From Aggregatilinea lenta (GTDB lineage Bacteria > Chloroflexota > Anaerolineae > Aggregatilineales > Aggregatilineaceae), in assembly GCF_003569045.1 (NCBI RefSeq), contig NZ_BFCB01000002.1, positions 682,001-746,000 on the forward strand: DNA of 64,000 nt, given 5' to 3'. The notes under the pieces were generated by a model, which had not been told where the DNA came from, made no database searches, and saw only the letters and a list, made by a program, of their open reading frames with translations. A program made the position numbers and the translations under genes. Positions 27,115 to 28,929 of this stretch are shown here, piece by piece (positions within the stretch are counted from its first letter, which is position 1; each line of letters begins with the position of its first letter).

Positions 27115-27882
27115 TTAGGTGCGCCGCGCGGTGACGATAGGCTGGTAGTAGCCGGTGTCTTGCGGCATGTGCCAGCGCACCTCCGCGAAGCCCGCGCCGT
27201 CGAGCATGGCGGACAGTTCGCCGCGCAGCAGGGCGCGGTAGGTCGTGCTGTAGGCATCCGTGCGCCAGCCGTCTGCCGCCTGCCGCACGATGAACATCGT
27301 CAGCGCGTACTGGCTGCCGTCCTCGGCCCAGTCCCACACCTGGAACACGATGCGCCGCCCGTCCGCGTCATCGGAGACCTGCGGCGGTGTGGCGCGCGGG
27401 CGGTTGAGCGTCAGATCGTCGTAGTCACGCATGCTGATCAGCAGCAGCCCGCCGGGGCGCAGCTTGGCGGCCATGTTTTCTGCCGCCCGCCGCAAATCGT
27501 CGTCGGTCAGCAGGTGCGGCAGCGCATTGTCGCACGAGAGCACCACATCGAACGTGCCCGCCACCTGATCGGCCAGCGTGCGGAAGTCCGCGACCCCGGT
27601 CGTGATCGCCAGCCCGCGCGCGTCGGCTTCCTGCGCGGCACGTTCCACCGCCGCCTCGCTGATGTCGGTTGCGTGCACGGTGTATCCGCGCGCCGCCAGC
27701 CCCAGCGCCTGCGTCCCGATCCCGCACGAGCAGTCGAGCAGGTCCAGCGGCGGCCCGCCTGCGAATACCTGGATCAGGCGATCCAGCGCCGCGCCCTGCC
27801 GCGCAATAGACGCGTTCCAATCGCCGAAAATCAGGTGATAGTCGGCGGCAAGCTGCTCGTAGAAGTCGTGTGCAGATGACAT
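27115..27882 (-). CDS. Class I SAM-dependent methyltransferase
   Basis: A 255-residue methyltransferase. Motif I is 'LDCSCGIGTQALGLA' (about 49-63, with the glycine-rich SAM loop C-S-C-G-I-G), motif II 'VHATDISEAAVE' (about 70), and a 'SCDNALPHLL' post-motif. No signal peptide or membrane segment. Substrate unknown; the adjacent SDR may modify the same small molecule. The first ATG at 27882 is used. Confidence 0.82.
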   Translation of the reverse strand: MSSAHDFYEQLAADYHLIFGDWNASIARQGAALDRLIQVFAGGPPLDLLDCSCGIGTQALGLAARGYTVHATDISEAAVERAAQEADARGLAITTGVADFRTLADQVAGTFDVVLSCDNALPHLLTDDDLRRAAENMAAKLRPGGLLLISMRDYDDLTLNRPRATPPQVSDDADGRRIVFQVWDWAEDGSQYALTMFIVRQAADGWRTDAYSTTYRALLRGELSAMLDGAGFAEVRWHMPQDTGYYQPIVTARRT

Positions 27883-27913
27883 ATGGACAGTTCTTAGTTG
27901 ATAGTGATTAGTT

Positions 27914-28012
27914 CTTAGAGGCCATTTGAAAATTGCTTTTTTGAGGGAGAGTTAGCAGCCAAACCGATGTTTGGTTTTCCCTCAGATCTTGAATATTCAA
28001 ATGGCCTCTTAG
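27914..28012. mobile_element. MITE: 12-bp TIRs, 5-bp target duplication
   Basis: AGGCCATTTGAA (27919-27930) and TTCAAATGGCCT (27996-28007) are perfect 12-bp inverted ends. CTTAG lies directly outside both ends (27914-27918 and 28008-28012), a perfect 5-bp target duplication. The 89-bp element has an inner 6-bp hairpin CCAAAC-CGAT-GTTTGG near 27959-27974, and no ORF. It lies in a gap (27883-28152) that otherwise contains only degenerate short repeats. No transposase gene is in the window. Confidence 0.8.
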
Positions 28013-28112: not shown

Positions 28113-28150
28113 CCTTTACTAATAACTACCAACTAAAAACTTACGACTGA
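28113..28150. repeat. Degenerate short-period repeat
   Basis: A run of loosely repeating TAATAACTACCAACTAA-type units just after the GNAT stop. Similar degenerate runs occur at about 50085-50155, 53868-53895, 48474-48500 and 26020-26045. Confidence 0.4.
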
Positions 28151-28152
28151 TT

Positions 28153-28929
28153 CTAGTACCTTCTCGGCGGCCCCATATACGAGGTCGTGCCGATGGTGTG
28201 GTAGCCCAGGTGCTCGTAGAGCGGCTGGCCGCTGGGTGAGGCCATCAGCGTGGTCGCCGTGCAACCGTCTGCCCGCAGATCGTCCAGCAGCGCCAGCATA
28301 ATCGTCGTAGCGTAACCCTTGTGCCGGTAGCGCGGGGCCGTGCCCACATTCCACACGCCCGCCATGGTGCCGGACCGCGCGACGGTCGCGCAGGCGGCGG
28401 GCTGACCCGTGTCGTAGATCAGATAATGCGTCACGTCGGGATGGTCGAGCATGTCGGGGCGCGCGATGCGCTGGTTGGTGGCGCGGTCGGTCAGAAAGGC
28501 GTCAGACATCACGCGCGCCACGTCGTGCAGGTGGTGCAGCGACTCCGCGCGCTGCGGCGTGACGTGCCGGTTGCGCGGCAGGGACCGGGGCGGCCCGTCG
28601 AGCACCATCAGCGGCGACGACCAGCGCCGGTAAAATCCGCACGCGATCAGCACCTCGCGCGCGGCGGGCATGAACGTATCGGTATACACGACGCTCCACG
28701 CGGCATTATACGCCGCGAAAAAGGCGTAGGCCGCGTCGATCGCGTCCAGCGTCACGGCGTCGGGCGTCACAGGCCAGAGGTGATTCGCCCCGGTCAGGCG
28801 GGTATCGCCGCTGTAACTGAGTGTGAAAGTGTCCTGAGTGCGGGTCACAGCGGACGGCCAACTGCGGAACATGATCGCGTAAAAATCATCCACGCAGCGC
28901 AGCGCCGCCCCGAGATAGGAAGCTGTCAT
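28153..28929 (-). CDS. GNAT-family acetyltransferase with N-terminal extension
   Basis: A 258-residue protein with the GNAT fold in its C-terminal half: the acetyl-CoA loop 'RYRHKGYATTIM' (about 200-211; R/Q-x-x-G-x-A) and a final 'LYEHLGYHTIGTT' strand (about 235). The first 120 residues form a second, degenerate GNAT-like domain. The substrate is unknown. It starts two bases after the end of the histidine kinase gene at 28932, so the two form an operon with the kinase first. Confidence 0.82.
   Translation of the reverse strand: MTASYLGAALRCVDDFYAIMFRSWPSAVTRTQDTFTLSYSGDTRLTGANHLWPVTPDAVTLDAIDAAYAFFAAYNAAWSVVYTDTFMPAAREVLIACGFYRRWSSPLMVLDGPPRSLPRNRHVTPQRAESLHHLHDVARVMSDAFLTDRATNQRIARPDMLDHPDVTHYLIYDTGQPAACATVARSGTMAGVWNVGTAPRYRHKGYATTIMLALLDDLRADGCTATTLMASPSGQPLYEHLGYHTIGTTSYMGPPRRY

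What the first reader, a model, noticed from the sequence alone, without database searches (positions are those of the whole stretch)
27914..28012. Well-formed MITE with 12-bp TIRs and 5-bp target duplication
AGGCCATTTGAA and TTCAAATGGCCT are perfect ends, both directly flanked by CTTAG. The 89-bp element has an inner hairpin and no ORF. The clean duplication suggests recent insertion by a transposase elsewhere in the genome.
Basis: seen in the sequence. Interest (0 to 1): 0.65.

Follow-up and report, generated by a model that had tools for sequence, protein, structure and literature searches.

The report
IS5-type MITE, two identical copies
A 91-base passenger transposon with no gene of its own has inserted between two ordinary genes of a Chloroflexota (Anaerolineae-type) bacterium; it is real and probably moved recently, but it is of a well-known kind (a MITE moved by an IS5-family transposase).

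Summary
In detail: 27914-28012 is CTTAG-AGGCCATTTGAA...TTCAAATGGCCT-CTTAG. The own genome (6.2 Mb, 5 contigs) has exactly one other copy, 99/99 bases identical, on another contig at an unrelated site, so the element is mobile. Three syntenic relatives have only about 17-20 bases between the two flanking genes and no element. The boundaries need correction. Sixteen paired elements with the same ends (own genome and five relatives) show 3-bp TNA target duplications (10/16 intact), while a 5-bp CTNAG repeat fits only 3. So the element is 91 bp (27918-28008), ends GAGGCCATTTGAA/TTCAAATGGCCTC, with TTA duplicated inside a CTTAG target. A 3-bp TNA duplication is the published signature of the IS1031 group of the IS5 family. 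In relatives an IS5-type transposase (PF13340) lies directly behind similar ends, and one copy is an internal-deletion derivative. No IS with these ends was found in the own genome; its three IS5-type copies with resolved ends have others (GAGCGTGTTTGTTAAA). It is an orphan MITE here, moved by a transposase lost or not recognised. Copy 2 abuts a second MITE family, also TNA-flanked. No RNA family or terminator was found. New member of a known kind.

The parts
27915..27917 (.). left target duplication TTA (inside target CTTAG)
   Evidence: sequence; matching TNA flanks in 10 of 16 paired elements
27918..28008 (+). MITE, 91 bp, no ORF
   Evidence: second copy 100% identical at G000:C3:1471805-1471903
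27918..27930 (+). left terminal inverted repeat GAGGCCATTTGAA
   Evidence: sequence; same ends in many relatives
27942..27986 (.). inner hairpin (TGAGGGA/TCCCTCA stem with a nested CCAAAC/GTTTGG stem)
   Evidence: DNA fold
27996..28008 (+). right terminal inverted repeat TTCAAATGGCCTC
   Evidence: sequence
28009..28011 (.). right target duplication TTA
   Evidence: sequence
27115..27882 (-). flanking gene: class I SAM methyltransferase (start codon 35 bp from the MITE)
   Evidence: Pfam PF13649 1.2e-17
28153..28929 (-). flanking gene: GNAT acetyltransferase
   Evidence: Pfam PF00583 2.9e-11

Best explanation
A non-autonomous MITE of the IS5 family, most likely the IS1031-like (TNA) group. A DDE transposase from an IS with the same ends binds the GAGGCCATTTGAA inverted repeats, moves the 91-bp unit and inserts it at a TNA site (in both own copies C-TTA-G), duplicating the 3 bases. 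Shown: two identical copies, TNA duplications in the family, insertion-free syntenic loci, IS5-type transposase sequence behind similar ends in relatives. Inferred: the transposase acted in trans, is now absent or unrecognised in this genome, and the move was recent.
For: Two 99/99 identical copies on different contigs at unrelated sites. Sixteen paired elements with these ends in the own genome and five relatives, 10 with matching TNA flanks. TNAGAGGCCATTTGA with all four middle bases occurs up to 40 times per genome (1 mismatch allowed), with a single control match over 11 genomes. The methyltransferase-GNAT gap is 270 bp here but about 17-20 bp without the element in G002, G008 and G014. 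In G011 AAAGACCATTTGAAAAACC is followed by an ORF matching PF13340 (IS4/5 transposase, 3.8e-11), and beside it lies a 279-bp copy keeping only the two ends of such an IS. In G010 the end precedes a frame MSERNPYPSDLN that resembles the start of IS5-type proteins MSERKPYPSDVSDDEW in G028. IS1031-group elements make an exclusive 3-bp TNA repeat (PMC12016507).
Against: No complete autonomous IS with exactly these ends was recovered; contigs break there. Own IS5-type elements with resolved ends carry GAGCGTGTTTGTTAAA. Only two own copies. The inner part of this MITE matches other elements only near the ends. Six of 16 pairs lack matching triplets.
Confidence: 0.9

Rival explanations
1. A MITE of another transposase family with a true 5-bp CTTAG target duplication.
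For: Both own copies have CTTAG on both sides.
Against: In relatives with the same ends only the central TNA is duplicated; outer bases differ (e.g. G-TTA / TTA-A, A-TCA / TCA-G). Copy 2 with its neighbour reads C-TAA-[MITE1]-TAA-[MITE2]-TAA-G, as two successive 3-bp duplications predict.
Confidence: 0.06
2. A conserved structured RNA or regulatory hairpin in the 5' leader of the methyltransferase gene.
For: Strong fold; 35 bp upstream of a start codon.
Against: No Rfam match at E<=1, no terminator-like site, identical copy in an unrelated context, absent from the syntenic leader in three relatives.
Confidence: 0.02
3. The mobilising enzyme is that of the own IS5-type elements (about 840 bp, ends GAGCGTGTTTGTTAAA, TNA duplications) despite the different ends.
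For: Same family and target type present in the own genome.
Against: Ends agree only in the first three bases and a few inner ones; IS transposases usually need close ends (general knowledge).
Confidence: 0.1

Closest known systems
IS1031 group of the IS5 family (e.g. ISLrh, PMC12016507)
   Same: Ends beginning with GA, TNA target with exclusive 3-bp duplication; IS5-type transposase sequence behind similar ends in relatives
   Different: No transposase; 91 bp instead of about 850 bp; different end sequence
Prokaryotic MITEs derived from IS elements (review PMC10969869)
   Same: Short, non-coding, inverted ends, target duplication, intergenic, stable stem-loop
   Different: Only two copies; no named family with these ends could be looked up (no ISfinder here)
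MITE-like elements with the same ends in related genomes (G011, G013, G015, G016, G032, G044, G051)
   Same: GAG[GA]CCATTTGA ends and TNA flanks; G032 and G051 share 18-19 terminal bases at the GAATATTC end
   Different: About 98-300 bp and different inner sequence

Membership tests
MITE (prokaryotic) | short non-coding element with terminal inverted repeats | tested here: met
   91 bp, 13-bp perfect ends, no gene-sized ORF inside
MITE (prokaryotic) | more than one copy at unrelated sites | tested here: met
   two identical copies
MITE (prokaryotic) | target-site duplication | tested here: met
   TTA/TTA at both own copies; TNA in relatives
MITE (prokaryotic) | autonomous partner with the same ends in the same genome (usual, not obligatory) | tested here: not met
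   no paired near-identical ends at IS distance; IS5-type copies with resolved ends have other ends
IS5 family, IS1031 group | 3-bp TNA duplication | tested here: met
   rule from PMC12016507
IS5 family, IS1031 group | IS5-type DDE transposase between the same ends | tested here: inconclusive
   PF13340 ORF behind the left end in G011, similar start in G010; no intact full element found
IS5 family, IS1031 group | transposition of this element by such a transposase | not testable with these tools
   needs a transposition assay

The most novel reading that the evidence does not exclude
Insertion of TNA-type MITEs (ends G...C) into CTNAG recreates CTNAG at each junction, so such elements pile up side by side: in the own genome and, apparently independently, in G032 a GAGGCC-type element sits exactly at the junction of a GCTCGACTTTGCACA-type element. 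This would be a self-renewing insertion hotspot.
Probability: 0.3. Interest if true: 0.35.

Novelty: new member of a known kind. Interest (0 to 1): 0.2.

Why it matters
It documents a TNA-target, IS5-linked MITE family spread through a Chloroflexota order, a marker of past IS activity, and a caution: repeats that adjoin conserved terminal bases can make a 3-bp duplication look like 5 bp.

Tried and rejected
Rfam at E<=1: no match. Promoter/terminator scan: no terminator, one weak promoter-like site on the other strand near chance level. Plasmids and phages: no match. Exact paired-end pattern in GTDB and viral contigs: none. Left-end pattern in GTDB contigs: 7 contigs, 6 of them Anaerolineae/Chloroflexi MAGs, no complete IS. 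IS5-type elements of G028/G001 that share the leader have different ends (GAGCGTGTTATGC). PF13359 absent from the own genome.

Full report
What is there. The ends are better written GAGGCCATTTGAA (27918-27930) and TTCAAATGGCCTC (27996-28008), giving a 91-bp element flanked by TTA. It lies between two minus-strand genes, a GNAT acetyltransferase (28153-28929) and a class I methyltransferase (27115-27882), and interrupts neither.

Is it more than chance? Yes. In the whole genome (6.2 Mb, 5 contigs, 98% complete) the 99-base stretch has exactly one other full match, 100% identical, on another contig (C3:1471805-1471903, opposite orientation), between two tandem RibD_C-domain genes. No change over 91 non-coding bases argues for recent movement (inference). 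Other perfect 12-bp inverted pairs at similar spacing do occur in the window, so the inverted repeat alone would not have been enough.

Empty sites. The methyltransferase and acetyltransferase genes are neighbours in G002, G008 and G014 (same family, other genera) with about 17-20 bp between them and no element; here the gap is 270 bp. The MITE and its duplication explain 94 bp of the excess. The rest is bounded by inverted TTAGT-rich arms (27889-27912 / 28118-28141), so the MITE seems to sit inside older inserted DNA (inference).

Target duplication. Among paired ends 60-350 bp apart in all loci fetched, 16 distinct pairs were found in the own genome, G011, G013, G015, G016 and G032; 10 have identical TNA triplets on both sides (TCA 5, TTA 2, TAA 2, TGA 1), while only 3, two of them the own copies, satisfy a 5-bp CTNAG repeat. 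Four rows are overlapping pairings in one array (L118), so the counts are approximate. The middle base of TNAGAGGCCATTTGA takes all four values across relatives, with one match of the reversed control. Copy 2 and its neighbour read C-TAA-[MITE1]-TAA-[MITE2]-TAA-G, as two successive 3-bp duplications predict.

Which transposase. In G011 the end AAAGACCATTTGAAAAACC is followed after about 30 bp by an ORF matching PF13340, the N-terminal part of IS4/5 transposases (3.8e-11); beside it is a 279-bp copy with only the start and end of such an IS. In G010 the end GAGGCCATTTGAAAAGTC precedes a frame starting MSERNPYPSDLN, which resembles IS5-type proteins of G028 starting MSERKPYPSDVSDDEW; this short stretch gave no Pfam match on its own. 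The exclusive 3-bp TNA repeat is documented for the IS1031 group of the IS5 family (PMC12016507). In the own genome IS5-type transposases are found at four places; three have GAGCGTGTTTGTTAAA ends, about 840 bp and TAA or TGA repeats, and a degenerate fourth has no recognisable ends. No IS with GAGGCC ends was found there.

Conclusion. A MITE, mobilised in trans by an IS5-family transposase that is now lost or unrecognised here. The element is ordinary in kind.

Noticed in passing
L086 5105-5282 (G000:C3, about 1471903-1472080); L090: A second MITE family, 178 bp, ends GCTCGACTTTGCACAT, mostly TNA-type flanks; two own copies and more in G032 and G051. In own copy 2 and in G032:C498 it is directly joined to a GAGGCC-type element.
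   Followed up: partly
window 27889-27912 and 28118-28141: Inverted TTAGT-rich arms (24 nt, 88%) enclose the MITE and about 160 bp of other DNA; similar TACTAATAACTAACAACTAAAAACT stretches recur in intergenic DNA of several relatives.
   Followed up: partly
G000:C2:1407642, C2:1648969, C3:2204209: Three own IS5-type elements of about 840 bp with the transposase in two frames (likely frameshift), ends GAGCGTGTTTGTTAAA, TNA duplications.
   Followed up: partly
L087, L116, L118 (G016, G013): Many 140-150-bp elements with GAGGCCATTTGA ends and C/G-rich CCCTCCCCGC-type cores, partly in arrays.
   Followed up: no
L086 4362-4973 and 5297-5884: Tandem RibD_C-domain paralogues; both MITEs lie between them, leaving AAGGAG just before the second start codon.
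   Followed up: no
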